Shown: positions 1,071 through 19,912 of the stretch, in pieces
How positions within the stretch are numbered: the stretch's first letter is position 1
Layout: every line of letters starts with the position of its first letter
DNA from: Sclerodactyla briareus
Taxonomy: Eukaryota > Echinodermata > Holothuroidea > Dendrochirotida > Sclerodactylidae
Direction: 5' to 3'
DNA length: 64,000 nt
Assembly: GCA_026419785.1 (NCBI GenBank)
Contig: JAODTK010005683.1
Coordinates: 105,716-169,715, forward strand
Translations under genes and position numbers: made by a program
The notes under the pieces: model-generated
Told to the model about the DNA's origin: nothing
Database searches by the model: none
The model's input: the letters and a program-made list of their open reading frames with translations, nothing else

Positions 1071-2800
1071 CACAGTAAACATGAGTTTTGAACGCCTTGT
1101 TTTTACTCTTGCAATGTTCTAAGCTAAAGAATCATAAATACTGCGGAGTATTGAATTAACTCCAACATAGAATTTGGCTTATTCCTTACATTATTCATGC
1201 ATATTTTCTTGCCTTTATTCTTGCCTTTCTCTTGCAAAAGCTCTTACATCATCCATACATAATTTTACGGCCAGTTTGGTATGGGCATGGCCCAGTGGAG
1301 AGCGATATAAGCGCACTTATGGATGCGGGTGGCGATGCGTAGTAGAGAGCAGCGAACACTGGGACACCTGGTGCCCCCAACTGGTTGGAGCATTGCCCCA
1401 ACTGGTGGCGCTATTAGGGCAACGCAACCGCAGTATGGGTAGTACACCGCAAACCTCCTGATGTTGGGAAGGAAGAGATCACACTCCCCGCAGATTCCTG
1501 ACTTTGGGTCCTGCCAACCTGTTTCAAGCTCAAGGATTGGAAGACTATGTCAGCCAGCTTAACACAAGCAACAGGCACGATGCCCAACACTACCACAAAC
1601 CCAAGCAAGCTGGAAACGAGCTCAGACGCCGCATGAAGCTTTAACTACGCATACTGGAAAGCTACTATCAAGAAGGTAACCCCTTACCTTTTACTTTTAA
1701 GAGTAGCAGATGAAGAACAAGGTGCTCACCTGAACCACCTCAGTCCGCCATTAGGGCGTAGGAATGACAATCACTGACATCTGTTAGGTCCGCCTGAACC
1801 CAACCTCCACTTTTAAGCTGAGTGGGATTTAGCAGGGGCTGACATCCTTTCCCTCCACCCCCCCCCCCCCCCCACCGAGTTTCTCAGTGAGGGAGGACAC
1901 AATGCCTGTTTGACAACAATGGATTTTTGCGGGTGAACAGTCATAGGCCAGCAGCATTGTCTCCAGCCCTAGCTAAGAAGTGGGGAACAAAGCATGTTGA
2001 AGATGTTTACCGATTCTGTGGCTACTGTGAAGGGCATTATTTATTCAATGATATGCCAGTAAGATGATGATGGCTCCTTCGCTTATTAATATATTCCAAT
2101 GATGCATGTTTTGGGCTGTTCAGTGGAGTATACTGTAGGCAGTGTAAGAAAGATAAGTTAACCCAAAACTTTCCACCAATCTCTCCGTGAACGTCGTCAT
2201 GGTGGTTGGGACGCCAGATCTCGCTCCTCGGTCAATGACCCGATTTCTTTCACTGAGTGTGATTTGGACAAAGGCCCTGTTTCGAGGAAAAATGCACCCT
2301 CAATTACCATATTCCAAAACAGAACGTTTTGAGAATTGTGCTGTGTCTGTTACTACTACTTACTCTCATGCATCCATCTCTTACATGCATGCATTGACTG
2401 TTGTTATCGTTTTTTTTTTATTATATTTTTAATATTTTAGCTCAAAGGTTAGTGGAAAGATCACATTCACCAAAAGGTACAGTAGTTCACAAGACTTCAG
2501 GTAAGTGGTGATAGTTTTTTTTAGGAGTTTTGGGGTATAGTCAAAGCGTGAAGTAACTGCCCTCCAGTAAATGGACCCAATAATGATTATCACACTACCT
2601 ATTCTAAACACATTTCTGCACCAACAGCAGTACTATTCCTAACCCAGACCATTATTGGTAATTCTGTGATCACATATTGATTATATGGCAATGTTCAGTA
2701 TGGAGATTCATTTGATGTTCATGCTTACGATAACATCAATTTTGGTGAATAATGTTGATAATCTCACGAAAACTACTTAAAGAAGAGTTTAATTGCTTCC
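1071..2800. other. Unassigned AT-rich stretch
   Basis: No coding sequence, RNA gene or transposon signature was recognised. It contains a ~15-base C tract near 1860 and an unidentified moderately GC-rich block at about 1270-1460. Short open frames occur on both strands but have no recognisable motif or clear splice sites. Confidence 0.5.
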
Positions 2801-2804
2801 TATT

Positions 2805-4600
2805 CAAAAACCAGAAAGACCAAAAAGGCCTTAGTGATTCCTTGCCACTGGGAAAAGGGGAAATTGTGCAAGCTCATTGATATGCAGGATATGACTTTCT
2901 CACTAGATATTTCCCAGTTTTCACAACCAATTGACACCAATTCGACAAAACAGTAGGGTCCTGTACCTCTCTGATGAGACGACTTACACACTAAATTTCA
3001 ACTTGATCAGATCAAGGCATTCTGGACTTAATCCTGTTTGCCGTCTGACCTGACCCCCAACAAATAGGTCTTGTATCCCCACATAAGAAGAAAACTACAC
3101 CACCAAACTCAGCTTCATCCGACCGGACTGTTCTAGAACTTATCGTGTGTTTACAAAGGTTTCCAGACTTCCTGGTGACCTCAGATGACATTTGGGACCT
3201 GCCCCAAAACAATAGGGATCATGTACTAAAAATATGGGGGCACACACATACAAGTAGGAGCTTCATCCATGGCAGGTGGGGTTGAGTTAGGTTGTTTACA
3301 AGCCAAAATTGGACAAAACATCAATTTTGAACAATTCAAATTTCTCTCAAAAAGGTCCCCCACAAAAAACAAACACCAACAAATAATAGGATTATTGCCC
3401 CCATAGAAAAGATACACACCAAAGTTACCGCTTGTCGGAACCAAGTTTTGAACTTAGCGTGTTTTACAATGATTCAGACTGTGACTTCTTGGTGACCTAG
3501 ATGACATTTGACCTGACCCCAAAACCATAGGGATCATTTACTAAATATGGGGAACACACATAAAACCAAGTATGAGCTTCATCATGCAGGTGGTCGAGTT
3601 AGGTTGTTACAAGCCAAAAGGACCAAAATATCAATTTTGCTATTTCCCAATTTCTCCCAAAAATGACCCAATCAACACCCAAAACCTAGGTCTTGTACTC
3701 CCCATAAAAAAAGCTACACACCAAATTTCAGCTGATTAGAAACCAACTGTTCTGGACTTATCGTGTTTAAAAGGAGTTTCAGACTTTGACCTATGGGGAC
3801 CTCAGATGACCTTTGACATGACCCCAAAACAATAGGGAGCATGTACTCAGCATGGGAAACACACATAATAAGTAATGAGCTCAATCCATCAGGTGGGGTT
3901 GAGTTTATTGTTTTTACAATCCCCAAAAATTGGCCAAAATATCAATTTTTGAACATTTCCTAATTTCTTTTTCTCCCCAAATTACCTCAATCAACACCCA
4001 AACCAGTAGGGTTCCTGTACTCTTATTCTCCCCATAAAAGCTACACACACCAATTGTCAGCTTGATCGGACCAACTGTTTTGGGGACTTATCATGTTTAA
4101 CAATGATTTCAGACTTGACCTCTGGTGACCTTCAGATGAAACCTTTTGACCTTACCCCACAACCAAGGGATCATGCACTCATCAATGGGGAACACACATA
4201 ATAATATGAGCTCACTCCATCCATTTATGGGGGTTGAGGTAGTGTTTTACAACAAAGACCAAATTGGCCAAAATATCAATTTTTTTACTATTTCCTAATT
4301 TCCTCCAAAAATGACCCTCAATCAACAACCCAAACCAGTATGGTTCTTGTACTCCCCATAAGAAAGGTAAACACAACCAAATTTCAGCTTGATCGGACCA
4401 ACTGTTCATACCAAGTATGAGCTCAATCCCTTTCAGGTGGGGTCGACTTATGGTTTTTACAAGCAAAGCATCAACACACATACACACCCCACATACATAC
4501 ACACGCACCAACACACCCACACACAATTACACACACATACGACATGACTACATAGATTCGTCGACTTTTGTCAAGGAATCAAAAATAGTGTGCTTGAGCT
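2805..4600 (+). mobile_element. Repeat element copy 1: head + ~4-5 units of ~310 bp + CA-rich tail
   Basis: The head (ACCAGAAAGACC, then TTAGTGATTCCTTG) is followed by units whose core TGACCTCAGATGAC-type block falls near 3176, 3492, 3797 and 4126. Each unit also carries a CAAAACAATAGGG-like motif, a GGGGAACACACATA motif, a CAGGTGGGGTTGAG motif and a CCAAAATATCAATTTTTG motif. The last unit is shortened by a deletion near 4405. The array ends in a CA-rich microsatellite and the tail CATAGATTC. Head, units and tail all match the larger copy at 60.9-63.9 kb, so this is one element family. No protein is encoded. Orientation is set by convention. Confidence 0.8.
4468..4545. repeat. CA/CATA-rich microsatellite at the end of the 310-bp repeat element
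   Basis: Interrupted ACAC/ACATAC repeats lead into the element tail. The equivalent microsatellite closes the second copy at about 63790-63843. Confidence 0.85.
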
Positions 4601-6610
4601 GATTGGTTAATTACTAAATCTGTCGGGGGTGAAACGAAAAGTCAATTTTGCCTAGCACAAAAAAATTTCACCAATTGTCAAATCCATGGATGTGATGTTC
4701 GTACGGTGTCAATTATGATCCCAAGTATACAACATTTAGTGCAAGTCCAATGCACAGATGGTTTCCAATGATTTAGGGCAAAATTAGGGTGAGGAGGTCC
4801 CTGACATTACAACCAGAAAAAAAAGTATCTCACCTACATATGCTACTCTTGCTATGTTTGGCTTTATTTTTCCCCATGCATGCTTTGATGACATGAACTC
4901 GCTTTTCTTTCCAATGTTCTTACAATTTTTTCACTCGTTTCCTGATGTTGAAAGTCTTTGAAATTGTAGATTTCAGATTTTGGCACAGTGAAAGGAATCT
5001 TTTCCGTCTGGAAATTTGCTAAATGTGACGCGATATGATCAAGCTTTGATACATTTTAGATTTTGGTCTTCAGTGAATGACAAAGCGTTCCACTTGTTTT
5101 CCCCGTACATATGTAGCAACTGGTTTGGCTTGGGGACATTTAATGATTCTACCAGGTTTGTCGACAGCGCACTCAACAAAGACATCTTTTATTATAACCC
5201 CTTTACCCACTTGACACAGGCCTCGCCCACACTGGTGCTTGTGATTGTAGACATAAATCCAAGAAAATTTTAGTGCTGGACTCTGCCAGTAGGAATTCTA
5301 CGGCAGCTGGACTCATTCGATTACGTATTTTTTTTTATCTCATAGGGCGGCATCCCAGTGGCCAGACCCCCTCGATCACAGGACTGGACCTATACAAGTT
5401 TTCCTGATGCCCCTCAACAATCAAATATCTACTATTGCGGATTTACGGGTCATATAAATAGCTATTTCTGTAATAACAGGTTCAAATCTGGGATGGGTGT
5501 CGAACCAAGCTCGTCGGCGATGGGTTGAACTTCACGTCCTAACGCTCATACAAACTTCCACAACGGGTACTAAATCCAACAAGAAGAATGCCGTTCTGTA
5601 CGAGCACGCGTCACAACCACCTCAATCAATCAGAACAAATGATTCGAGAATGCCATCAACCTGAGCCATTGGGGACATCGATAGTTCCCTTGTTAGTAAC
5701 ATGGGATTGGATGAGACTTGGGTCGTTTTGTGCACTGCCTAGGGGTGTATAAATAACGAACACGTGGATCGCAATGCCTATGCGTTCCCGTGTTGTATCT
5801 GGTATCAACCGAATTGTATAACCAATTTCGCGACAGCGAAGCCTCCATGATACTATCCACTGTGAGATGCGTGCCATAAGGAACTCAAATCGGTGGTGGC
5901 CTAGATGATACGTTTATACGCGTACCATTACGCTTCCCGATGATGTGCTGGAGTTGATCATAACGACGGCAGTTGCTCTTCACCCCAGTATAAGACAGAA
6001 CCTATGACTTGTAAGCTGTTTTTTTCAAGATGGTGGTTGACAAATTAATTAGTTCAGAACATCAATGTGATCACCAAGCAATAAACGTCGGAAGGTGCAT
6101 TCACTCGCTGTCCCCCTTTACCGATCGTGGGAATCCTGGCGAGATGGCACCTCGAAATCCACTGGAGATAAGGTGTTTAATAATAGTACTGGTGAGATTC
6201 CCCCCCCCCCCCCGCCACCATAAATAAATGTAAATATGGTAGGAAACTTGTGGTCAGTTGTATCCATGATTTAGTTTTAAAAGGGCACATGGTTGTCTCA
6301 AGTAGGATGCCGCCCAAATAGTGACAATCCACGTTTCCTTTCCTATATAATTTTTTGTTCTAGTTGTGGATTTGGTCATCAATATTCACCACCACAGTAC
6401 GTATAAATCACGTCCCACGAATCCGTCCCCCAAAAACAAATTCTGCAACTTCTCTAGAGATACGATTTGTTGTCTCTAACTACTGAAATTGATGGGTGGA
6501 GTGAGAGAACAACAATGCATGGAATGCTTCTAAAACAGCAAAATTCACCACTGCCACTTTTACAGCGTGTGATTATTAGGTTTTATCAAATTCAATGAAG
6601 TAAAGGAACG
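4601..6610. other. Unassigned non-coding stretch
   Basis: No gene or mobile element was recognised. A GGTTCAAATCTGG stretch near 5481 resembles a pol III B box, but no A box lies at the right distance. A C tract of about 14 bases lies near 6200. Confidence 0.45.
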
Positions 6611-6615
6611 AAGAT

Positions 6616-7680
6616 ATGTCTCACATAGTGAAGGGGAAGACGACACAAAAGAGCAGCCAGCGAGCCATTCCGGAAAACTCCACCCGCCTAAAACGAGAAG
6701 GTGTATTCATTCACACAATGCCAGCAAGGAAGGCCGGGGCCTATGATAAGCAGAAGCAGGCATGTTTTGCGGGCATTTGGTCCAAGTCCTCATTGCCAGG
6801 CACATACTGGCGGTTCATAGCAATGAACGGGAAGTTGCTGCTATACGGGCATTCGATGATAAACAGGAGAGGAGGAAGCGACTTGACCTGTTGCGTAATT
6901 GGGGGAACTACCTCCACAACATGCCGGCTATTGAGTCATGGCGAAATAATCCTAATGCTGCGACCACCCAAGTCCCAAGATGTGGATGCAGCGACTAGGG
7001 CATGCCCAAAGTGCCTGGGATATGTCCGTCTCAGCGACCTGTGGAGGCATACGCACCACCGCTTTGTTGGCAGGAAGGACGTGCCAGGCTCAGCTAGGAA
7101 GGGGGACCTCATTTTGGAGTCTGACATCCTTGGCAACAGTGGAAATATGCATGGCGCCAGCGAGGATTCGAGAACTTTCGTGCTCGCCACCATGTGCATG
7201 AATGACACTTCCAGAATTGTCAAAAGTGACCCCACTATTCTGAAACTTTTGGCTTAGGAAAGTTGGCGGTCAACTTAAGTCACTTACATCGAATGGGATG
7301 TTGTTGGCAGGACGGGAGTGAAGGAGCTCAGAAAGATTCGCCCTGGGAATGAAAGTATGGAAGATTTTCTCATGCCACAGTGCTTTGACGATGTCTGCAA
7401 AGCAGCCAAGATACTGGCAGTGGAGGAAGTGTCATGTCTTGGAAATGCCACTTTCAAGAAGCCCAGCACCATCATCAAGTCTGGCCATGACATCAAAAAG
7501 TTGGCAACAATCAAGCTATGTAATGCATTGAGGAGAGGGGATGAAAGGCAGGAGGAAGAAGCTCACCTTGCACGAGAAGGAGTGGGGACTCAAGATGTCC
7601 TCCGCAGCACTGAGCACCCTGAGAGAACGCCGTTTCAATAAGGATGACAGCCTGCCTCAGACAGCGGATCTAACCTTCAA
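6616..7680 (+). pseudogene. Transposon-type protein of unknown function, zinc-finger-like, frameshifted (copy 1)
   Basis: Two overlapping frames carry one decayed protein. The upstream part lies in a frame around 6762-6998, then shifts into the frame ending at 7257. It contains a C2H2-like element, CPKCLGYVRLSDLWRH, near residue 130 of the 6616 frame. A second block at 7318-7641 is basic and includes KKPSTIIKSGHDIKKLA. I recall similar proteins as abundant and multicopy in fish and invertebrate genomes, probably mobile-element borne, but cannot name the family. The C-terminal part is duplicated at 9575-10020 with only a few differences. Stops and frameshifts make a functional product unlikely. 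The start codon is not meaningful here. Confidence 0.45.
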
Positions 7681-7689
7681 AAATTGCAT

Positions 7690-8930
7690 AAACCATGCAA
7701 ATTAAACACATTAAATGACCTCCAGTAACCCAGACTTCACTTTCAAATTTCTCGGGAAACAATGGTCGACCACATCCACCAAGTTTCGTGAGAATCGACA
7801 AAGTATAGTGATTAAATTGAACTTACATGGAAGTAGTGACGACCTCTAAATGACGGCACGGAGCTAGTCCTCACCAAATGGCAAGACGATCATCCCACGC
7901 AGAGCCATGACCAGTGCTGACGGACCTACCACACGGGACAAAGCCACTCCCGGTCTTACTGACCCAGGCTATACGCCAGTCACCGGCCCAATACACAGGC
8001 CTCTGCTTCTTGCAGCCGCCGAACTGCTCATGACAGTACGGACATTCAGAGCGAAGTGCTACTCCATTACGCCCCGAAATTTATCGAACACGCTGCCACG
8101 TCCTAAAACAATACCGAATTCTATAGCCTCCTATTGTGTTCAGTGAAGCAAAACGTCGCTGTATTGTATCACTTTGCGTATAGCGTCTCGCCCAGACTCG
8201 CTAATTAATTGATAAACAATAAACTATTACGTAATCTCATGCTATGCAAAACATCACGCAACTCTTCCTGACCTGAAAATGACCCATGACTACTAGTAAA
8301 CCACTGACGTCACATCTGCTCAGACGTCACACCAGACTTGATAATGCTGTCCAAAATTTAATCAGATCGTGTACACCAACCCGGTGCTACACACAAAATT
8401 TTGTCAGTCGGCCTCACGGTTATAGAAATCCTGCTCAGGGAATTGACACACACAGCAAGGTGACCACTATGTCGCTTCTGAATTTCATTCAGGCAAGGAC
8501 AAAAAGGCGATTCCCCAGTTCAGGGATCAAGTGAAAAGATTTTAGCATGTAGCTTTATGCATAGCCATTACTGTTTTTAAATCAGTGTGATTAAGGGGAT
8601 CACCTCAACAATTAACAATTTCTCCACCATAATGCCATTTGTTGAACTGCAGGTTACGTAGTAATTCAGGAACCATCTAAACAACTTCTTACCCTGTCTG
8701 TTTCACATTCCATGCATGTATTTGAGGCTATATGTCAGTGGTTGGTAATTGCTTAGTCAGGATTATTTCTTTCAAATTGCAGGTTGAACCTCTCCTTTTA
8801 TCGTAGTTTGTTGTCTTCCTCGCGTCAAATGCGTTCTGTAACGGGTCTCCGTCAGTCAGGCTAGAGTGAATTGCGCCACCACCCCCTCACAGCATGGCTC
8901 CCGTCAACTTAGAGCTACAGGTCAGTCAAC
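7690..8930. other. Unassigned stretch between transposon fragments
   Basis: No recognisable coding or RNA signal. Short open frames at about 7907-8146 and 8286-8534 lack motifs. Confidence 0.4.
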
Positions 8931-10892: not shown

Positions 10893-10991
10893 TTAGTCTC
10901 ATTCCCTGGTCACTGTATCTTTGTTCGACTACAGTCGCTGAAACGAAGGCCGACAAAGCTGCCTTGAGTATCGCTTTCGATCTATCAGAAG
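10893..10991 (+). pseudogene. Parvovirus NS1-like helicase, C-terminal remnant (lineage A)
   Basis: This stretch aligns with the end of the helicase segment at about 15.93-16.03 kb. It keeps the residues just after helicase motif C and an ETKADKAAL block that is identical in both copies. Everything upstream, including the Walker motifs, is missing, so this is the broken left edge of the integrated element. Relative to the other copy it lacks about two bases near its end, which puts it out of frame with the next exon. A GT donor follows directly. Confidence 0.6.
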
Positions 10992-11071
10992 GTTAGTTAT
11001 TTTTTCTTATTTGGTTTTTTTATTAGTTTTGTTGATTAGTTTCTTACTTAGGTTTCTTTTTTCTTTTGCAG
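10992..11071 (+). other. Putative 80-bp intron, lineage A
   Basis: It begins GTTAGT after AG and ends TTCTTTTGCAG before GTGAAG. The 3' half is strongly pyrimidine-rich. An intron of exactly 80 bp lies at the same place in the other lineage (16031-16110), although the two intron sequences have diverged. Confidence 0.6.
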
Positions 11072-11982
11072 GTGAAGACTGTGCCAGCCGAGTGGCGGAA
11101 CCTGAATCAAGATCTCCATCCAGCGGTGTTTGTGGGCTATCTGCAGCGGAATCCCCTCCATCCCTTTCGCTCGGTGCTAGCGCCCTCTACCGTCGTAGAC
11201 GGAGGAAGAGAAAGCAGGAGAGTGTCAGTTCTTCAAGAAGAATAGAAGATTGTTTACGGGCAGTTGGAGATAGTGCAGGCTCGACGTGCCCAAGTTACCC
11301 AAGAATTCGAGAACTACAAGAAGAAGTCAGAGGCGTTGTTACAAGCGGGTGGGTCGAATCCCGACCTAGTGGATCTCCAAGCCGAAAAGATCATATTCTA
11401 TATGAACTGGACCATCTCCAAAACGAAAGAGATGAACTAAAATCCGAACTGGATCGTGCCCTCTCGCTCAATCGTGACCTGGAAGGTCAACTCCGCCAGG
11501 TCAAGAAAAGACCATATGAGCACGATCGAGCTATCTCCCGTAAGCTCGATAATATCGATGTGTCGTAAAGGCGAAGATCGCTGAGAACCATAATCTTAAA
11601 CGTCGTGTCGCCGAGTTGGAAACTGGACGTGTGCGAAGCAGAACAAGTCTCTTCGCAAAACTATTGATTGGCTGCGACGACAGATTCCATCTACTTCTAC
11701 TCCGACGAAATCTTGCTCTCCTGTCTCTGATTTGCTAGATCAGGAGGGATACTTGAAGGATGGAACCCCAGAAGCCAGAAGAGGGGGGGGGGGATCCGCC
11801 GATGATGAATTAGCGACGCCTAGTTGGATGCTATCGATGTGATGGAAGAAGAGTTAGCAGTCACGAAGCAGTTGGCTGAAGAGTACCATGTTCAAGTTAA
11901 TGAATTGAAAAAGTTAATTCGTACATGTATTCTTGCGATTATGACTGTTAGTAAATTTGCAAGATGTTTGGTAGAAATGTAG
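11072..11982 (+). pseudogene. Coiled-coil region of the parvovirus-like element, lineage A, frameshifted
   Basis: After the intron, one frame encodes a conserved head containing VFVGYLQRNPLHPFRS. It then shifts into a heptad-patterned coiled coil around 11385-11520 (LDHLQNERDELKSELDRAL), followed by a conserved DWLRRQIPSTSTP block near 11670 and a C-terminal ELKKLIRTCILAI helix ending in a stop. The same blocks occur in the same order in lineage B at 14.2-15.3 kb. AATAAA signals follow at about 12024 and 12048. The overlapping frame starting at 11011 is Arg/Ser-rich (YRRRRRKRKQ) in the head. The role is unknown. It is probably the C-terminal part or an accessory product of NS1. At least two frameshifts and a G-run insertion break it. 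Confidence 0.6.
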
Positions 11983-12107
11983 TGCCTCAGAAAAGTATCA
12001 TTTTATAAGAGCAGAGCACGCAAATAAAGCACTTGTGCTGTTTTTTCAATAAATGCTTTGCTTTTGCTTTTCTAATAAATGATAAAGTTTGTGGCGCATT
12101 GACTTAA

Positions 12108-12283
12108 CCCTAGAGTTAGGGTTAGGGTTAGGGTTATGGGTGCTCCATGTGCGCGCTCTGAGTCGTATTTATCGGCCAGGGTTTTAGTGCGGAGTAGCAA
12201 CCCTAACCCTAACCCTAACCTAGGGTTAAGGTCAATGTGCCACTACAAAAAATATTCGGGTGAGGGGTAGGGTTAGGGTTAGG
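12108..12283. repeat. Telomere-type TTAGGG/CCCTAA blocks at the 3' end of the lineage A coiled-coil region
   Basis: Three short telomeric runs lie at about 12112-12137 (TTAGGG), 12199-12228 (CCCTAA) and 12266-12284 (TTAGGG). They face one another around the motif GCGCGCTCTGAGTCGTATTT. That motif recurs at 12485 and, inverted, at about 16850-16870, so it belongs to the viral end and is not random telomeric DNA. Confidence 0.8.
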
Positions 12284-12289
12284 GCTAAG

Positions 12290-12450
12290 TGCTTCGGTTG
12301 CGCGTTTGCTTTAGGAGGATTTTCTAAAAGCTTTTTTAAAGCACCCAAGTGCTCATATGCGGCTCTGCTTTATTAAAATACAGGAGTTTTTTAAAGCAAA
12401 AATAAACATATATACAACATCACCACACATCTTGCAACTTTACAATTGTT
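12290..12450 (-). repeat. Inverted copy of the coiled-coil gene 3' tail (lineage B type)
   Basis: This is the reverse complement of the 3' untranslated and terminal region at about 15115-15290, including the TTTTTTAAAGCAAAAATAAAC block and the TTGCAACTTTACAATTG block. It sits tail-to-tail with the lineage A coiled-coil gene across telomeric repeats. A second inverted copy is at 16522-16715. Confidence 0.8.
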
Positions 12451-12477
12451 TCAGGTAGGGTAGGGTCGGGTTTATCC

Positions 12478-12795
12478 GCTCATATGCGCGCTCTGAGTCG
12501 TATTTTTAAGGGAGGGTTAGGGTTAGGGTTAGGGTTAGGGTTAGGGTTGGGGTTAATGATAGCTGAGGGCCTAGGGAGCGGGGTTAACATTAATGAAGCA
12601 CAATCTCGTATGCAGGCATCAGATTGTGCAAAATCAATGTTAACCCCTAACCCTAACCCTAACCCTAACCCTAGCCCCTAACCCTAGCCCCTAACCCTAA
12701 CCCCTAACCCCTAATCCTAACCCCTAACCTAACCCCTAACCCTAACCCCTTCCCCAACCCTTACCCCTAACCTAACCCCTAACCCTAACCCTAGG
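12478..12795. repeat. Terminal hairpin H1 with telomeric stem and palindromic apex
   Basis: A leader ending GAGTCGTATTTTTAAGGG precedes about six TTAGGG units, then GATAGCTGAGGGCC and GGGGTTAACATTAATG. The apex lies at about 12598-12631, with 9-bp arms GCACAATCT and AGATTGTGC around a smaller TATGC/GCAT palindrome. A long, imperfect CCCTAA/CCCCTAA array follows to the VP promoter region. The right stem lacks the GATAGCTGAGG partner seen in H2, so it is truncated or rearranged. In structure it resembles a parvovirus terminal palindrome built on telomere repeats. Confidence 0.7.
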
Positions 12796-12975
12796 GTTAA
12801 CTTTTGCCGCGTATTAATTTCCCGCCAATTGTTAATAGAGTCTTTGTCCTCTACTGCGTAAACAGATCAATAAAATTATTGACCCTTAATACTAATATAA
12901 TAATCCGCCCTCCCAGTTTGATTTATAACAATACGTGCAGTATTGATTTCAGTTAGTTTATATAAATCGGACACC
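12796..12975 (+). promoter_or_regulatory. Putative VP promoter region, copy 1
   Basis: It starts GGGTTAACTTTTGCCGCG directly after the telomeric block and contains TTTATATAAATC, a TATA-like box, about 15-20 bases before the VP ATG. The same 180 bases precede VP copy 2, including the shared AATAGAGTCTTTGTCC block. Confidence 0.5.
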
Positions 12976-14204
12976 ATGTTTCAAGGTTCACCATTTGCTG
13001 TTCTCGCTGGATTGGAGACAGAGTACTACAAGAAGGTGATCAACTGGCAACATAACCAACGTAGTTGTATAACCATGCTGTTAATACTGCAATAGCTGAG
13101 CTGCTGCAAAACATACTGTTCAAATTCCTGGTCATGTTTATACAGGAACCGGTACTGGATATTGAACACGAAAATCGACCGCCCGTATCTGCCGTAGATA
13201 GTGCTGCAAGGGAACATGATTTAGCATATAATGATCCTAATGTAAAGACTGCTGACGCTGATGAACATTTAATTTTCCCATAGCAGTAGATGCTAATAAT
13301 ATAGAAGGACAACTAGTTACACCGCTGCCTCTCCAAGGCAAAAAACTAGTTGATCAACATTTATTTAATACGGATCCTATTTTCAGACCTAACTTAGTTC
13401 GTAAACGTCCTCATTCTGGTTCGATTTCTGAACCAGAGATTAAAGTACCCAAAATGGCGCCTAACAAACCTGGTGCGAATAGTGATGATGTTGATATGGA
13501 AGATCCTGATAGTGTGTCTGGTGGAGGTATTCTATCTGGTACACCTATTACTACTAATGCTCATCTGGGTTTCTTCCGAACTTGGGAAGTGGATGGTAAT
13601 AGATTAAAATGCGGTCGTACTTTTCAACATTATAGTGATATTCTATTCTGGTGCGATTGTAGCAGAATAAGATTGTACAGAGTAGTAAGATAGTCATGCC
13701 TCGTTTAATTTAGAAAACAAGTGGTTACGTGTTCCATGGGATCGCATGTCGGCATATATAAGTCCAGCTAAGTGGCAATGGCTAAAATGAACTTTGAGAA
13801 ATTAATCATTAATTCTGTCACTGTAAACATTCATGATGTTCAATTTATATGCGAGACTACACTTACCGGTGATAACGTTGGAAGAGAAGTTGAAGGACAA
13901 AATATATTTTTTTATGTAGATACTACCTGTATTTTTGGTGCTCATCATGCTGACGACAGTGAAATTAATCATAATATGACTGCACCACTGTGTGATCGTG
14001 CTGATTCCCAATTACCGACGTTAATTTAGATATTACTCATCTATTGAAACCTTTCTACAATGTATTACGTCACACTGCTAAAGAGGTGGTTTCCCAGATA
14101 GTTCAGAGAATGAAAGGAAAAGCAATAAATAATCAATGAAGCCATATACATAGTTTTGTTGTTGTACATGAATTACCAGGTATTCGATGTCAAAACTGCC
14201 ACGG
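12976..14204 (+). pseudogene. Parvovirus-like capsid protein VP, copy 1, broken and 3'-truncated
   Basis: VP forms the capsid. Parvovirus VP1 N-termini carry a secreted-PLA2-type domain used to leave the endosome. Here the ATG follows the TATA-like box. The PLA2 signature is visible around residues 50-80: a calcium-loop-like YTGTGT near 13142 in one frame, and PPVSAVDSAAREHDLAY near 13181 with the catalytic HD pair and Tyr. A Gly-rich linker (SGGGILSG) follows. The jelly-roll start lies around 13565-13900, with YISPAKWQWLK-like and VNIHDVQF motifs. Several frameshifts break it, for example near 13060, 13280 and 13660. It lacks the last third present in copy 2 and is joined abruptly at about 14204 to the coiled-coil gene. 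Family assignment is confident; genus is not. Confidence 0.8.
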
Positions 14205-15325
14205 GATCAGTCCCAGCACAGTGGGTGCAGCAGAACCAAAGATCGACCCGTGCCGTTCGTTGGCTACCTCGAGAGAAACCCGCTACATCCCTTCAGATCG
14301 GCAATAGCGCCCTCTACGTCCGTAGATCACAGAAGAGAAGCGCGGCGAGTCTCAGCCCTGAGCGAAGAACTAGACGACGTGTATCAGCAACTCGAAGTTG
14401 TCCGAACGAAGCGTTCCCAACTGACCGAAGAGTTAGAGACATCCAGGAGGAGGAACGAAGCATTACTACAAGTACGATCGAATGACGAGATCAGAGAAGA
14501 GCTACAACAGTTGAAGGAGAATTGTGACACGTACACCTCCGAGATCACGAACCTACAGTCAGATAAGGATCAGCTAATCTACGAAGTAGATCACCTACGT
14601 GAGGAACGAGATGAGGTGAAAATAGAACTGGATCGAGCAATCTCCCTGAACCGCGAACTAGAAACCGAACTGTCTAAAATCAAGGCCGATAACATAGAGT
14701 CACGATAGATCGGATCTCGTCACTGGATAACATCCGGACGGTAGTGAAAGCGAAATAGCAGAGATACAACACTGAAGAGGCGTCTCGCTCAATACGAGAC
14801 TGATGCTCCTGACCGAAAAGTGAAATCTCTGAGGAACACCATCGAATGGTTAAGAAGACAGATCCCTTCCACCTCCACGCCGAAGAGGACCGGGTGTCAC
14901 CAGTATCGAGGATACGACTCTTCGTGGACGATAGACGGTATCTGAAGGATGGAGCAACCAATACGAGAGTCTCGCAGACGATGAACCTGTAGCAACGATA
15001 ACTGCCGTGACGCCCAAGCCTTGCTAGAGGAAGATCACGCTAACAAAGTTTAGTGAAGAGTGACCAAGAACACTTAACAGAACTTAAAAGATTAGTTAGA
15101 GTATGTATAATAGCTATACATGAAACAATTGTAAAAGTTGCAAGGATGTGTGGTGATGTTGTATATATGTTTATTTTTGCTTTAAAAAACTCCTGTATTT
15201 TAATAAAGCAGAGCACGCATATGAAGCACTTGTGCTTTAAAAAAAGCTTTTATAAAATCCTAAAGCAAAGCGCGCAACAGAAGCACTACAGCCCTAACCC
15301 TAACCCTAACCCTAACCCTATATAA
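14205..15325 (+). pseudogene. Coiled-coil region, lineage B, copy 1, joined to a truncated VP
   Basis: This is the fullest copy. The head contains FVGYLERNPLHPFRS (around 14250-14295), followed by a long coiled coil (14355-14700) with heptads such as LREERDEVKIELDRAIS. A WLRRQIPSTSTPK block lies near 14850 and a C-terminal amphipathic stretch, ELKRLVRVCIIAIHE, near 15072. An AATAAA at about 15200 lies inside the final open frame, which runs on into telomeric repeats. The upstream exon (helicase) and intron are missing, because VP sequence replaces them. An overlapping Arg/Ser-rich frame spans 14156-14485. Frameshifts occur near 14706 and after. It matches the partial copy at 16111-16316 almost exactly. 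Confidence 0.7.
15293..15319. repeat. CCCTAA telomeric run at the end of coiled-coil copy B1
   Basis: About four CCCTAA units terminate the coiled-coil tail and are followed directly by an AT-rich TATAATATATATAATATATG stretch. The helicase segment begins just after. The junction resembles an element end joined to a truncated NS1 segment. Confidence 0.85.
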
Positions 15326-15336
15326 TATATATAATA

Positions 15337-16030
15337 TATGACACTTTATCCTAGCCAACAGAAAGAAGTAACCAAACTGGATAAGATCTTAATGTCAGCG
15401 AGTGTTGATCGCTAATTCGAAGTAGCAAAGTCCCGAGCACAGCTAATATACGCGGAGCATTCTATCCAGTACCTTGCGGAGACGTATTGCGTAGTATACG
15501 GTACTTCCGCACACATCGGGGCATTCGGAGAAAAGATTTATGGATTGCAAGAATCGTACTTCCATCTGGAAAGATGGTGTAAATTGCAGGGACTGGACAC
15601 AAAACAGTTCTGTACTGATGTTGTTCAATGGTACAACAGATCCCAAGGTGACAGAAAGCGCAATACTATCGTGCTTTACGGGGAATCGAACGCAGGGAAA
15701 TCATGGGTATGCAAACCCCTGGAGAAACTATCCAGAAATGTCGCTCGCCTATCATCAGAACGAGGGAATAAAAACTTCTCGTTCCAAGCCTTACCGAACG
15801 TCAGATGGGCCGTATTCGACGACTTCAAAGTCACGTCCGAGGATCTCGACACCTTTAAGAAGATCTTAGGCGGAGAACCAACAGACGTCGCGAAGAAGTT
15901 CTCGACTACGCAGGTCAGAGTGAATCCAATACCATGCTGGATGTCGTTAAACTACGACATACTCGCGACAGTATGTGAGACTAAAGCAGACAAGGCCGCG
16001 CTGAAGAATCGTTTTCTTCTATATCAAAAG
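15337..16030 (+). pseudogene. Parvovirus-like NS1 superfamily 3 helicase segment
   Basis: SF3 helicase of the replication protein NS1, which unwinds viral DNA in the nucleus. The open part runs from about 15421. A Walker A motif GESNAGKSW lies at 15685-15711. A Walker B-like VRWAVFDDF lies at about 15801-15827, with DD where many parvoviruses have EE. A motif C region is IPCWMSLNYD, and ETKADKAAL comes near the end. A possible upstream start at 15337 is interrupted by an in-frame stop at about 15412. The HUH nickase domain expected upstream is absent here; a candidate lies at 19080-19912. An AG/GTTGGT donor at 16030 leads to an 80-bp intron, and splicing would keep frame with the coiled-coil exon. 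Unspliced, the frame stops at 16078. Confidence 0.8.
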
Positions 16031-16110
16031 GTTGGTAGACGTCACCTTAGGGTAATTAAATTTCTTATCATTAATTAGATATTTAAATATAACTCTTATT
16101 GTTCTTCCAG
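16031..16110 (+). other. Putative 80-bp intron between helicase and coiled coil, lineage B
   Basis: GTTGGT donor after AAAAG, and a TTATTGTTCTTCCAG acceptor before GTGAAAGC. The helicase frame ends on a complete codon at 16030 and the downstream coiled-coil frame begins on a complete codon at 16111. Length and position match the lineage A intron. Confidence 0.65.
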
Positions 16111-16316
16111 GTGAAAGCAGTCCCGCACAGTGGGGGGTGCAGGCCGAACCAAGATCTACACCCGTCCGTTTTCGTTGGCTACCTCGAGAGAAACCCGCTA
16201 CATCCCTTCAGATCGGCAATAGCGCCCTCTACGTCCGTAGATCACGGAAGAGAAGCGCGGCGAGTCTCAGCCCTGAGCGAAGAACTAGACGACGTGTATC
16301 AGCAACTCGAAGTTTT
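16111..16316 (+). pseudogene. Coiled-coil region, lineage B, copy 2, truncated by a telomeric hairpin
   Basis: This is the exon that follows the 80-bp intron. It has the same head as copy B1 (FVGYLERNPLHPFRS) and the start of the coiled coil (ELDDVYQQLEV). It is cut after about 68 codons, where the sequence changes to a TTTTAAGGGAGGGTTAGGG hairpin stem. A second, Arg-rich frame through the same DNA stays open into the telomeric repeats, but that extension is only repeat-encoded Gly-Leu. Confidence 0.65.
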
Positions 16317-16490
16317 AAGGGAGGGTTAGGGTTAGGGTTAGGGTTGGGGTTAATGATAGCTGAGGGTCTAGGGTTTGGGGTTAACATTAATTTTGCACAA
16401 TCTGATGCCTGCATACGAGATTGCGCTTCATTAATGTTAACCCCGCTCCTAGACCCTCAGCTATCTTTAACCCTAACCCTAACCCTAGGG
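16317..16490. repeat. Terminal hairpin H2, the most complete palindrome, apex inverted relative to H1
   Basis: The left arm is TTAGGG units, then GATAGCTGAGGGTCTAGGG and GGGGTTAACATTAAT. The right arm is its complement, ATTAATGTTAACCCC, then CTAGACCCTCAGCTATC, then CCCTAA units. Each arm is about 60-70 bp with a few mismatches. The apex at about 16394-16428 is the reverse complement of the H1 apex, with one base difference (TTGTGC versus TTGCGC) in the cross-arm. This matches the flip and flop forms of a parvovirus terminal palindrome. Confidence 0.75.
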
Positions 16491-16521
16491 TTAGGGTTAG
16501 GGTTAGGGTTAGGGTTAGGGC
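16469..16521. repeat. Head-to-head telomeric array (CCCTAA)n/(TTAGGG)n
   Basis: About three CCCTAA units meet about five TTAGGG units at CCCTAGGG with no spacer. The left half is also the base of hairpin H2. The array is followed by an inverted coiled-coil tail. Chromosome fusion would give the same pattern, but the flanking viral sequences favour a viral end-to-end joint. Confidence 0.85.
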
Positions 16522-16715
16522 TAAGTGCTTCGGTTGCGCGCTTTGCTTTAGGATTTTATAAAAGCTTTTTTAAAGCACAAGTGCTTTATATGCGTGCTCT
16601 GCTTTATTAAAATACAGGAGTTTTTTAAAGCAAAAATAAACATATATACAACATCACCACACATCTTGCAACTTTACAATTGTTCATGTATAGCTATTAT
16701 ACATACTCTAACTAA
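16522..16715 (-). repeat. Second inverted copy of the coiled-coil gene 3' tail
   Basis: It is nearly an exact reverse complement of 15087-15290, running from GCTTCGGTTGCGCGCTTTGC to ATACATACTCTAACTA. It lies between hairpins H2 and H3, in the same arrangement as the inverted tail at 12290-12450. Confidence 0.85.
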
Positions 16716-16918
16716 TGAAGCACAATCTCGTATGTGAGCATCAGATTGCCAGGCATCAGATTGTCAAAATAATGTTAAACTCCCAAACCCTAGCCCTCAT
16801 CCGATCATTAACCCCAAACCCTAACCCTAACCCTAACCCTAACCCTCGCTTAAAAATACGACTCAGAGCGCGCATATGAAGCGGATAACCCTAACCCTAA
16901 CCCTAACCCTAGGGTTAA
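16716..16918. repeat. Terminal hairpin H3, rearranged, leading into VP copy 2
   Basis: The apex (AATGAAGCACAATCTCGTATG) is in the H1 orientation, with a small internal duplication of CATCAGATTG. It is followed by a degraded stem, CCCTAA units, and the leader complement AAAAATACGACTCAGAGCGC. Four more CCCTAA units follow, then GGGTTAACTTTTGCCGCG of the VP promoter region. The left stem is missing. Confidence 0.65.
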
Positions 16919-17082
16919 CTTTTGCCGCGTATTAATTTCCCGCCAATTGTTAATAGAGTCTTTGTCCTCTACTGCGTAAACAGATCAATAAAATTATTGA
17001 CCCGTATATAATCTCCCTCCCAGTTTGATTTATAACAATACGTGCAGTATTATTTCAGTTAGTTTAGTATAAAATCGACATC
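16919..17082 (+). promoter_or_regulatory. Putative VP promoter region, copy 2
   Basis: Same sequence as upstream of VP copy 1. The TATA-like element here is TTTAGTATAAAATCG, about 12-20 bases before the VP ATG at 17083. Confidence 0.5.
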
Positions 17083-19053
17083 ATGTTCAATTGTTCGCCA
17101 TTTGCTGTTCTCGCTGGATTGGAGACAGAGTACTACAAGAAGGTGATCAACTGGCAACATAACCAACGTAAGTTGTATAACCATGCTGTTAATACTGCGA
17201 ATAATGCTGTAGCTGCTGCAAAACATACTGTTCAAATTCCTGGTCCTTTTATACAGACCCGTACTGATATTGAACACGAAAATCGACCGCCCGTATCTGC
17301 CGTAGATAGTGCTGGGGCAAGGGAACATGATAGCATATAATATCCTAATGTAACACTCTGACTCTGATGAACTTTAATTTCCCATGCCGTAGCGCTAATA
17401 ATATAGAAGGACACTAGTTAACGCTGCTCTCCAAGGCAAAAAACTAGTTGATCAACATTTATTTAATCGGATCCTATTTTCAGACCTAACTTAGTTCGTA
17501 AACGTCCTCTTCTGGTTCGATTTTTGAACCAGAAGATTAAAGTACCCAAAATGGCGCCTAACAAACCTGGTGCGAATAGTGATGATGTTGATATGGAAGT
17601 CCTGATAGGTGGTCTGGTGGAGGTATTCTATCTGGTACACCTATTACTACTAATGCTCATCTGGGTTTCTTCCGAACTTGGGAGTTGGAGGGTAATAGAT
17701 TAAAAATGCGGTCCGTACTTTTCAACATTAGAGTGATATTATATCTGGTGCTATTGTAGCAGATAAGATTGTACAGAGTAGTAAGAATAGTCATGCTCGT
17801 TTAATTTAGAAAACAAGTGGTTACGTGTTCCATGGGATCGCATGTCGGCATATATAAGTCCAGCTAAGTGGCAATGGCTAAAACTTAATTATGAGAAATT
17901 AATCATTAATTCTGTCACTGTAAACATTCATGATGTTCAATTTATATGCGAGACTACACTTACCGGTGATAACGTTGGAAGAGAAGTTTAATAAAGGACA
18001 AAATATATTTTTTATGTAATACTCCCGGTATTTTGGTGCTCATCATGCTACGACAGTGAAATTATCATATATGACTGCACCACTGTGTGATCGTGCTGAT
18101 TCCCAATTACCAGACGTTAATTTAGATATTACTCATCTATTGAAACCTTTCTACAATGTATTACGTCACACTGCTAAAGAGTGGTTTCCCAGAAGTTGCA
18201 GAGGAATGAACAGAAAGCAATTAATACTAATGAAGAACTTATACATAGTTTTGTGTACATGAATTACCCGGTAGATTCGATGTTCAAACTGCCACGGGAT
18301 CAGAATTCTCTTATACTCAGAAAGTGAATGTAACTAAGACTTTACGTAGTTCGATGATTACTCCTATTCGTTGGAAACCGCATAATACTGATGATAATAG
18401 AAATCCTGAGATAGGAGATAAATATTTCACCACTAGACGTGTACATCAATCACCCTATGATTCTCCTGTAACACCTGTTGTAAGAGGTATCGCTGTTGAT
18501 GAAACTACACATGATACTAAAAATCTTACATGGGCTGAAGGTTTCCGAGAATACGATGCACTCATGGTGGTTTAGTATGTCCGTTACCTCTAGTACTAAT
18601 CAGAGCAGAACCAAACAATTACCCTGCGACTATTAAGCATTATATGAAGATGAAAATCGATTATATATTAGATATTTCCCTAGTGCCTATTTCTCACCCA
18701 TCATTATATCCATTGTACATATACGAGCCATTCTATAAAACCGATAAGAGTACATTTACCTCTGCGTCCGCGCCTGATGCATCATCTATTTTAACTCTAA
18801 CAAAATTACTCAAATACCTCGTGCTTTGGTGGCTGATCTCCCGCGGTAACCTCCTAACGGCTAGTGGGTACTGATTTAACGGCGGTTGGAAATAATGTTC
18901 CTTTGTATGACTGCTCAGCAGCTAATATTCGTCAAAAAGTATGGTACAACTACTACACCTCAGCCTGCAAATCATGGTGAAGTTACTGCAAACAGTATCG
19001 TAAATCCTCATTATACAGGATTTTATGGTCCATGGTCGGCCGATCAAATATAG
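17083..19053 (+). pseudogene. Parvovirus-like capsid protein VP, copy 2, near full length but frameshifted
   Basis: Covers the whole capsid gene, about 650 codons long if frames are ignored, in the range of parvovirus VP1. The N-terminal PLA2-type region has PPVSAVDSAGAREHD, with one extra residue compared with copy 1 and a disrupted calcium loop. The Gly-rich linker and the start of the jelly roll follow. The C-terminal part is absent from copy 1: open blocks at 18324-18575 (with VHQSPYDSPVTPVVRG) and 18644-18874, ending FYGPWSADQI and a stop at 19051. Frame changes are needed near 17340, 17600, 17880, 18260, 18575 and 18874, most of them 1-2 base indels relative to copy 1. All are consistent with decay or read error. 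The NS1 N-terminal region follows within 30 bases. Confidence 0.85.
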
Positions 19054-19079
19054 TAAGTATGTTTTCTTTTCATTTTCAG

Positions 19080-19912
19080 ATGGCATATATTATTAGAGAC
19101 CCAAGAGACGGTCCGGTCCCTTCCGCCCGATCGCCGAACAAATTTCAATGCTAGAGATGCGATTTTTAGGAGAAAGATGTGGTATACAACAGTACTGTTT
19201 TGTGACACTATCACGTCAGAGCTCCGCAGTGAAATCGTCGAATGTACGAAGTCAAAGTTTGAACATTCACGGGATGCTGCACGACTTTGCATTGATACGT
19301 CATCCAATCCCAGTATCAGACGAGGCGCACGATGAAGTAGATTTTTGCTTTTTGCAGTATGACGACCAAAGACCACTACCACTTTGTATGGTCCGCGGAA
19401 GCTAACGCGTTAAGCCATGGGACGGTTAGATCATGGCACAACAACCTATACCGTATCGTACGCAACGATAAGAATATCGCGGACACCAAGTCAACACGCG
19501 TCAAATCAGAGAAAGTTAAATCGTCGCAATTCTTTGTGTACCTAAAGGTCCCTCCTCGCTCCGTTGATTTTGTGTTCCATGAGTCGGGTAAGGATATTAC
19601 AGAGATGATGGGATCTGTCACACAGGCTGACATAGATGACATGATACATACATCGATCGAAGCACGAGAAGACTCAGCGGACGAAGCAAGTGAGCACCCT
19701 ATACATTTTCTTGAAGGATTTATTCTGAAGAATAACGTGTGGAAAGTCCTCAGAAGCAACACGCTGGCTATAATTACTCGTCGGAGGAAACGGGACTAAA
19801 AGTCGGTTCTCCTGGCCATCAAGAGAGCGCTCTCAAGGGAGCCGAAATGATGCCGCCGGCGTCTCTGAGGAAAACTGGCTCGAGCTGGCATTTGTTCACC
19901 ATTGACTGGCTT
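19080..19912 (+). pseudogene. Candidate NS1 N-terminal (HUH nickase-like) region
   Basis: It follows VP by 26 bases. The ATG at 19080 comes directly after TTTTCATTTTCAG, a good splice acceptor. The first part shifts frame near 19150. The longest open block, 19359-19799, starts with a DHYHFVW motif, the H-hydrophobic-H pattern of HUH nickases, and has a later FFVYLKVPPRS stretch. It then becomes acidic (EAREDSADEASEH). The nickase Tyr cannot be assigned with certainty. A further shift near 19795 leads to a final short open stretch. With the helicase at 15.3-16.0 kb this would make a split NS1. The assignment rests on the motif and on context, not on clear homology. Confidence 0.5.

What the first reader, a model, noticed from the sequence alone, without database searches (positions are those of the whole stretch)
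10893..19912. Endogenous parvovirus-like element whose ends are built from telomere repeats
Capsid, helicase, candidate nickase and coiled-coil genes are interleaved with hairpins whose stems contain runs of TTAGGG/CCCTAA. VP starts and coiled-coil 3' tails each abut such repeats in more than one place, so the repeats look like part of the viral terminus and not random host DNA. A parvovirus that carries host telomere repeats in its inverted terminal repeat could use them for integration at, or maintenance near, chromosome ends, as some herpesviruses do.
Basis: partly seen in the sequence, partly recalled or inferred. Interest (0 to 1): 0.92.

Follow-up and report, generated by a model that had tools for sequence, protein, structure and literature searches.

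The report
Parvovirus fossil with telomere-repeat hairpin ends
Inside an unnamed, probably animal, genome lie copies of a parvovirus-like virus whose hairpin ends contain the repeat that caps the chromosomes of many animals, and whose capsid gene comes before its replication gene, the reverse of the usual order.

Summary
Window 10931-19799 is a rearranged cluster of parvovirus-like copies: NS1 helicase (Parvo_NS1, E 1e-14), capsid pieces, coiled-coil gene, TTAGGG-bearing hairpins. The window lies in a 319 Mb assembly. A second locus (C2113) holds one unit of about 5.2 kb, ITR, VP, NS1, coiled coil, ITR, with TTAGGG at both ends in mirrored orientation (23 copies right, only 2 perfect ones left). 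Divergence between the loci is concentrated at third codon positions (159/103/390), so they derive from two distinct viruses that both carried the repeats; a third, more divergent copy (10931-12250) is also followed by them. All 3 VP starts and all 3 preserved coiled-coil ends found lie within 250 bp of TTAGGG. (TTAGGG)4 occurs at 8 places in the genome: these two loci and six interstitial arrays without element sequence. The repeats are part of the stem of strong palindromes, and the tip occurs in opposite orientations in two copies, like flip and flop of rolling-hairpin replication. Telomere integration is not supported: both loci lie in non-telomeric DNA. Gene order VP-NS1 reverses the described parvovirus layout. 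Capsid matches are weak, the 'nickase' rests on a recalled motif. What the repeats do is inferred, not shown.

The parts
10931..10996 (+). 3' end of an NS1 helicase exon of a more divergent copy, then an intron-like stretch
   Evidence: homologous to 15968 onwards and to L007; subs 5/1/13 of 24/24/24 by codon position
11060..11982 (+). coiled-coil exon, copy 1 (third lineage, about 60-67% DNA identity to the others)
   Evidence: subs 35/40/68 by codon position against copy 2
12091..12243 (.). palindrome behind coiled-coil copy 1, TTAGGG in its stem; apex probably lost; its core (12104-12183) is 86% like the inner ITR part at 16841-16918 reversed, so it may have been joined here secondarily
   Evidence: fold -53.2 kcal/mol, z -13.0
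12258..12457 (-). inverted copy of the coiled-coil 3' untranslated region with TTAGGG
   Evidence: 91% to the reverse of 15117-15318
12463..12800 (.). ITR in front of VP copy 1; arrays 12517-12546 (+) and 12645-12788 (-), hairpin tip about 12575-12640
12976..14205 (+). VP (capsid) copy 1, frames broken, cut off where it joins coiled-coil copy 2
   Evidence: 12591-14210 is 88% like 16713-18303; PLA2-like piece 13065-13280
14208..15150 (+). coiled-coil exon, copy 2 (3' border by eye)
15145..15320 (+). 3' untranslated region and TTAGGG array (15292-15315), followed after about 40 bp of AT-rich DNA by mid-NS1
   Evidence: inverted repeats I1, I4, I5
15363..16042 (+). NS1 SF3 helicase, front part missing; open frame 15416-16078
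   Evidence: Parvo_NS1 1.3e-14; PDB NS1/Rep
16111..16314 (+). coiled-coil exon, copy 3, truncated; abuts an ITR
   Evidence: 16118-16314 is 92% like copy 2
16333..16487 (.). terminal hairpin with TTAGGG in the stem; tip in the opposite orientation to that at 12575-12640 (flip/flop)
16491..16716 (-). inverted coiled-coil 3' untranslated region with TTAGGG array
   Evidence: 96.5% to the reverse of 15091-15320
16713..16912 (.). ITR in front of VP copy 2: tip, outer array 16819-16842, spacer with AGAGCGCGCA, inner array 16889-16906
17083..19050 (+). VP (capsid) copy 2, frames broken
   Evidence: Parvo_coat piece 17791-17991 E 5.5e-3, PDB VP2 E 0.07; codon-position counts against C2113
19080..19799 (+). 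NS1 amino-terminal part, candidate HUH nickase (HYHF in 19341-19799), directly after VP
   Evidence: collinear with C2113, where the helicase follows it; no relevant family, protein or PDB match and no usable fold; motif recalled

Best explanation
This is a cluster of endogenous, rearranged concatemer-like copies of a parvovirus-like virus whose genome runs ITR - VP - NS1 (candidate nickase plus helicase) - coiled coil - ITR on one strand. Each ITR folds into a hairpin whose stem contains TTAGGG (about 2 to 23 copies per array) next to conserved viral blocks. Shown by sequence: the repeats stand at the matching place in two viral lineages at separate loci (and behind a third, more divergent copy, where the join could be secondary), in mirrored orientation at the two ends of a single unit, and inside the palindromic stem; the tip occurs in two opposite orientations. 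Inferred: the hairpins prime rolling-hairpin replication by NS1 and host polymerase, and the repeats are replicated as part of the viral ITR. Inferred and least certain: their role is to dock host telomere-repeat-binding proteins (or form telomeric G-quadruplexes) on the exposed viral ends, shielding them or holding the genome in the nucleus. The confidence below is for the viral-ITR claim; given it, I put the roles at: host-protein docking or end shielding about 45%, NS1-binding array about 25%, homology-driven telomere integration about 15%, no role about 15%.
For: Second, non-telomeric locus C2113 with one unit: the same window ITR segment (about 12513-12612) matches its left end reversed (96%) and its right end forward (89%). 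Blocks next to the arrays are shared by C2926 and C2113. Substitutions between them by codon position 159/103/390 of 1115/1116/1090, so divergence was largely under protein-level selection before integration (two of the ten pieces, 17068-17337 and 13265-13690, show little third-position bias: 11/3/9 and 24/13/26). Third copy 35/40/68. (TTAGGG)4 at 8 places genome-wide, 24 of 37 matches in the two element loci; stretches of 4.5-5.5 kb around the other six hold no element sequence by blastn. Expected unrelated arrays near a 5.3 kb unit: 1e-4 each. Hairpins z -15.9 and -13.0. Flip/flop: tip 12550-12660 has 90 identities to the reverse complement of 16344-16460 (131 columns, about 98 overlapping) against 81 forward (117 columns, about 111 overlapping) (overlaps counted by eye). 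NS1 helicase.
Against: No exogenous relative was found: none in IMG/VR by helicase or VP piece, none in the protein database by helicase or nickase piece (that search is length-limited, and short pieces cannot reach full-length NS1). The left ITR of C2113 holds only 2 perfect hexamers. The internal order in the window may contain assembly errors, and the palindrome behind the third copy may not be its own. Candidate nickase unverified, its single-sequence model useless (mean pLDDT 34). The third helicase locus, C2011, shows no array, but its ends are not preserved. A genome-wide search with the hairpin tip did not complete (last try). No call tests any role of the arrays.
Confidence: 0.9

Rival explanations
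1. The virus integrated into host telomeric or interstitial telomeric DNA, or break repair added TTAGGG at the junctions, so the repeats are host DNA next to the virus.
For: Host interstitial arrays of 4-15 hexamers exist at six other places. Insertion of telomeric repeats at break repair is reported for primates and rodents (start of the abstract of PMC7215372 in the listing).
Against: In C2113 viral hairpin blocks lie outside the arrays, and beyond them no cluster of three or more hexamers was found in L007 and no doublet in L008 and L009. Orientation is mirrored at the two ends; the repeats form both strands of the palindromic stem; matching position in two lineages.
Confidence: 0.04
2. The TTAGGG arrays are the binding array of the viral NS1 itself (in place of the short tandem Rep-binding repeats of other parvoviruses, recalled), and their likeness to telomeres is convergent.
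For: They sit in the ITR stem, where Rep/NS1 sites of known parvoviruses lie (recalled). Tandem short repeats are a usual form of such sites (recalled).
Against: Copy number varies from about 2 to 23, and another motif, AGAGCRCGCA, occurs near the arrays at both loci (6 times in the window, expected 0.08; 2 in L007) and is a competing candidate. Its copies lie in repeats and are not independent, and it also occurs in two IMG/VR contigs, L014 and L019.
Confidence: 0.25
3. Herpesvirus-like telomere integration: the arrays let the virus enter host telomeres by homology, as proposed for HHV-6 and Marek's disease virus.
For: Same repeat at both genome ends; HHV-6 and MDV have TTAGGG termini and integrate at telomeres (passages of PMC3533235).
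Against: Both loci have non-telomeric flanks and none of the 8 (TTAGGG)4 places is at a contig end. Copies in telomeres might be missing because no telomere was seen in the assembly.
Confidence: 0.15
4. Assembly artefact: noisy long reads joined viral pieces to telomeric reads.
For: The assembly looks noisy: VP copies 1 and 2 differ by 24 substitutions in 1123 sites but 41 gaps, and adjacent actin pieces lie in different frames at C1260 and C2792 (frames worked out from the coordinates). The internal order of 10.9-16.9 kb is odd.
Against: The same ITR structure appears on two contigs with diverged genes, with conserved blocks next to the arrays.
Confidence: 0.03

Closest known systems
Parvoviridae (Densovirinae, Hamaparvovirinae, Parvovirinae)
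   Same: NS1 SF3 helicase, VP with PLA2-like and coat-like pieces (weak), unit of about 5.2 kb, terminal palindromes, flip/flop tips; G-quadruplexes reported in the ends of a whitefly parvovirus and of others (passages of PMC12297876)
   Different: VP lies before NS1 on the same strand, whereas NS is described as left and VP as right in all parvoviruses (PMC11357303 section 5); TTAGGG in the ITR stem; coiled-coil exon after the helicase
HHV-6A/B and Marek's disease virus telomeric repeats
   Same: host-type TTAGGG arrays at genome ends (passages of PMC3533235); HHV-6 U94 is described as an AAV Rep68 orthologue (start of the abstract of PMC4499131)
   Different: large double-stranded DNA herpesviruses (recalled) that integrate in telomeres; here a parvovirus-like hairpin and non-telomeric insertions
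Endogenous nimaviruses of crustaceans inserted in telomere repeats
   Same: animal DNA virus flanked by telomere-type repeats
   Different: insert into the arthropod repeat (TAACC/GGTTA)n and share a tyrosine recombinase family (passages of PMC10871703); here the repeats are inside the viral ITR, and no recombinase was searched for or noticed
Interstitial telomeric sequences
   Same: short TTAGGG arrays inside chromosomes
   Different: the six found here are arrays in one orientation without element sequence

Membership tests
Parvoviridae | NS1 with SF3 helicase | tested here: met
   Parvo_NS1 54.3 bits against a cut-off of 20; PDB NS1 and Rep
Parvoviridae | HUH nickase domain in NS1 | tested here: inconclusive
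   HYHF in 19341-19799 by eye (motif recalled); no relevant family, PDB or protein match; fold failed
Parvoviridae | Jelly-roll capsid protein VP | tested here: inconclusive
   one piece: Parvo_coat 15.8 bits, under the cut-off of 27, and a PDB chain named VP2 at E 0.07; other VP pieces gave no such match
Parvoviridae | PLA2 domain in VP1 (many, not all) | tested here: inconclusive
   Phospholip_A2_4 20.2 bits, under the cut-off of 23.9
Parvoviridae | Linear genome of 4-6 kb with palindromic hairpin ends, flip/flop | tested here: met
   L007 about 2672-7905 with inverted end blocks; palindrome and inverted tips in the window. Seen in endogenous copies only
Parvoviridae | NS genes on the left, VP on the right | tested here: not met
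   VP-NS1-coiled coil, same strand: full order in C2113, the VP-nickase part in window copy 2; norm. So I call it parvovirus-like and place it in no named subfamily
Parvoviridae | Place in the NS1 phylogeny | not tested
   no set of parvovirus NS1 sequences was gathered
Telomere-integrating herpesvirus type (mechanism) | TTAGGG arrays at viral termini | tested here: met
Telomere-integrating herpesvirus type (mechanism) | insertion in host telomeres | tested here: not met
   non-telomeric flanks at both loci; none of the 8 (TTAGGG)4 places at a contig end

The most novel reading that the evidence does not exclude
A lineage of small single-stranded DNA viruses has made its replication hairpins out of the host's telomere sequence, so that host telomere-binding proteins (and perhaps telomerase, which could explain arrays of up to 23 repeats) protect, lengthen or position the viral ends: telomere mimicry in a parvovirus, with a reversed gene order that could mark a new family-level group.
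Probability: 0.35. Interest if true: 0.93.

Novelty: new variant of a known kind. Interest (0 to 1): 0.82.

Why it matters
Parvovirus ends are called telomeres by analogy; here they contain the telomere repeat itself. That links rolling-hairpin replication to telomere biology, gives a small natural system for asking how cells treat TTAGGG hairpin ends, and adds a further virus type to the herpesviruses and nimaviruses with a telomere connection. The VP-NS1 order also departs from the layout described for all parvoviruses. Among the rows listed by the library searches (one search listed 20 of 1,975 and one search listed 20 of 64) no title or abstract start reports TTAGGG in a parvovirus end; most of these papers were not opened, and subscription papers and preprints were not searched.

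Tried and rejected
Related viruses: IMG/VR by helicase piece and VP piece: none. (TTAGGG)4 in IMG/VR: 17 contigs; tblastn of 7 window pieces against them at E up to 1 gave one chance hit at 0.28. L019, which also bears AGAGCRCGCA twice, looks like a phage by its open frames (by eye). Protein database by helicase and nickase: none, with a length limit that short pieces cannot get round. Nickase fold: useless; no fold search was run. Arthropod repeat (TTAGG)5: 1 match, as many as its reversed control, so there is no sign of TTAGG arrays. Host name: COX1 gave no match in the assembly; not pursued. Eight other long open frames of the window: no Pfam match at 0.01. tRNA and Rfam scans of the window: nothing. 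The genome-wide search with the hairpin tip (16353-16470) did not complete (last try), so solo ITRs elsewhere are not excluded. No contig-end telomere was seen among the 8 (TTAGGG)4 places, so that TTAGGG is this host's telomere repeat is inferred from interstitial arrays only.
Full report
Setting. The window is G000:C2926:105716-169715 of an unnamed 319,486,128-base assembly in 3171 contigs. Actin pieces spread over kilobases fit a eukaryote with introns; that it is an animal is inferred from the virus type.

What is there. All 43 near-perfect TTAGGG doublets of the window fall in 12116-16912. The genes around them are parvovirus-like: the open frame 15416-16078 is Parvo_NS1 at 1.3e-14 over its part 15545-16078 and matches solved chains named NS1 and Rep. 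By profile it is the only Parvo_NS1 match in the genome, and 0 of 14 control genomes ring; the broken copies at C2113 and C2011 were found by DNA, not by profile. Of ten pieces scanned, one matches a PLA2-like profile and one Parvo_coat, both below Pfam's cut-offs; one piece aligns with a solved chain named VP2 at E 0.07. Coiled-coil copy 2 matches only generic coiled-coil families, copy 1 none. The proposed nickase has no relevant match by family, PDB or protein search; its HYHF motif is a recalled sign only.

Order of pieces in the window (some borders by eye): NS1 end and coiled coil of a divergent copy (10931-11982), palindrome (12091-12243), inverted 3' untranslated region (12258-12457), ITR (12463-12800), VP copy 1 cut off at 14205, coiled coil 2 (14208-15150), array (15292-15315), helicase (15363-16042), truncated coiled coil 3 (16111-16314), hairpin (16333-16487), inverted 3' untranslated region (16491-16716), ITR (16713-16912), VP copy 2 (17083-19050), NS1 front part (19080-19799). 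This reads as a rearranged concatemer of replicative forms, or in part as assembly error.

The unit. Two other loci hold relatives of the helicase: C2113 (71% by DNA) and C2011 (68%). VP DNA was found only in C2926 (twice) and C2113. C2113 (L007) holds a single unit from about 2672 to 7905: hairpin end, VP, NS1 (front part and helicase), intron-like gap, coiled coil, 3' untranslated region, 23 TTAGGG in 7663-7805, and the hairpin blocks again, inverted. The left end has only 2 perfect hexamers. The DNA read on both sides of the unit has no cluster of three or more hexamers in L007 and no doublet in the 4 kb beyond on either side. C2011 has only helicase and coiled-coil remnants on the minus strand, no array in 10 kb, and its ends are not preserved, so it is uninformative.

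Are the repeats viral? Five tests. (1) Position: all 3 VP starts found have the nearest hexamer 179-242 bp upstream; the 3 coiled-coil copies with a preserved 3' end, of 5 copies in all, have one 133-187 bp downstream (points set by eye); the truncated copy breaks off 11 bp before one; the fifth, C2011, is cut off. (2) Lineages: C2926 and C2113 differ by 159/103/390 substitutions at codon positions 1/2/3, of 1115/1116/1090 sites in ten window pieces, with 236 gaps; the pieces include overlapping parts of the two window VP copies, so sites are not all independent, and two pieces show little bias (11/3/9 and 24/13/26). The first coiled coil of the window differs from the second by 35/40/68. The excess at third positions means that they diverged largely as functioning genes, so repeats at the matching place in two lineages are ancestral; the third copy agrees, but the palindrome behind it resembles the main lineage's ITR (86%) and may have been joined there later. 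(3) Structure: the repeats are in the stems of palindromes with z of -15.9 and -13.0. (4) Flip/flop: the imperfect tip is in opposite orientations at about 12575-12640 and 16384-16440, as rolling-hairpin replication leaves it (established parvovirus biology). (5) Background: (TTAGGG)4 has 37 matches at 8 places in 319 Mb, the reversed control 0; the six places outside the elements hold 4-15 hexamers in one orientation and, within 4.5-5.5 kb stretches, no element sequence by blastn.

Noise. Between VP copies 1 and 2 there are 24 substitutions in 1123 sites but 41 gaps. Neighbouring actin pieces at C1260:170309-170820 and C2792:267460-267940 also lie in different frames (frames worked out from the coordinates). 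So much of the breakage may be assembly error, not decay, and the age of the insertions cannot be read from it.

How it may work. Shown: repeats are part of a viral ITR hairpin. Inferred: rolling-hairpin replication by NS1. Not tested: the role of the repeats. I favour docking of host telomere-repeat proteins or end shielding (about 45%), because copy number is loose (about 2 to 23) while a separate motif, AGAGCRCGCA, lies near the arrays at both loci and could serve NS1. Rivals are an NS1-binding array, and homology integration as in HHV-6 and MDV (PMC3533235, passages). The last is not favoured by the two sites, but an assembly in which no telomere was seen could hide telomeric copies.

Comparison. 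A review states that all parvoviruses have NS on the left and VP on the right (PMC11357303 section 5). Here VP comes first, on the same strand, with ITRs outside. Hence I file it as parvovirus-like, not in a named subfamily. Of four papers on endogenous or novel parvoviruses I read passages only (PMC12297876, PMC5013282, PMC7737747, PMC13055364); the word count of TTAGGG (TTAGG in the first) in their main texts was 0. Library searches listed no title or abstract start that reports such repeats in a parvovirus; one search listed 20 of 1,975 papers.

Verdict.

Noticed in passing
L007:2672-7905; window 17083-19799: Gene order VP then NS1 on one strand, with a coiled-coil exon after an intron-like gap behind the helicase; reverse of the described parvovirus layout.
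   Followed up: partly
window 12013, 12150, 12485, 15210, 16591, 16865; L007 7524, 7598: All 6 window copies and both L007 copies of AGAGCRCGCA lie in ITR or 3' untranslated parts of the elements (expected 0.08 in the window); a candidate NS1 site. It also occurs in the IMG/VR contigs L014 and L019.
   Followed up: partly
G000:C1260:170309-170820; G000:C2792:267460-267940: Adjacent actin pieces lie in different reading frames, a sign of indel noise in the assembly.
   Followed up: no
L048-L053: Six interstitial TTAGGG arrays of 4-15 hexamers, the only (TTAGGG)4 places found outside the elements in 319 Mb; none at a contig end.
   Followed up: partly
L010:4390-5760 (minus strand): Third NS1-helicase and coiled-coil remnant (C2011), with minisatellite-like repeats nearby; carries AACCCTAGCC-type repeats near the end of its coiled coil (by eye).
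   Followed up: partly
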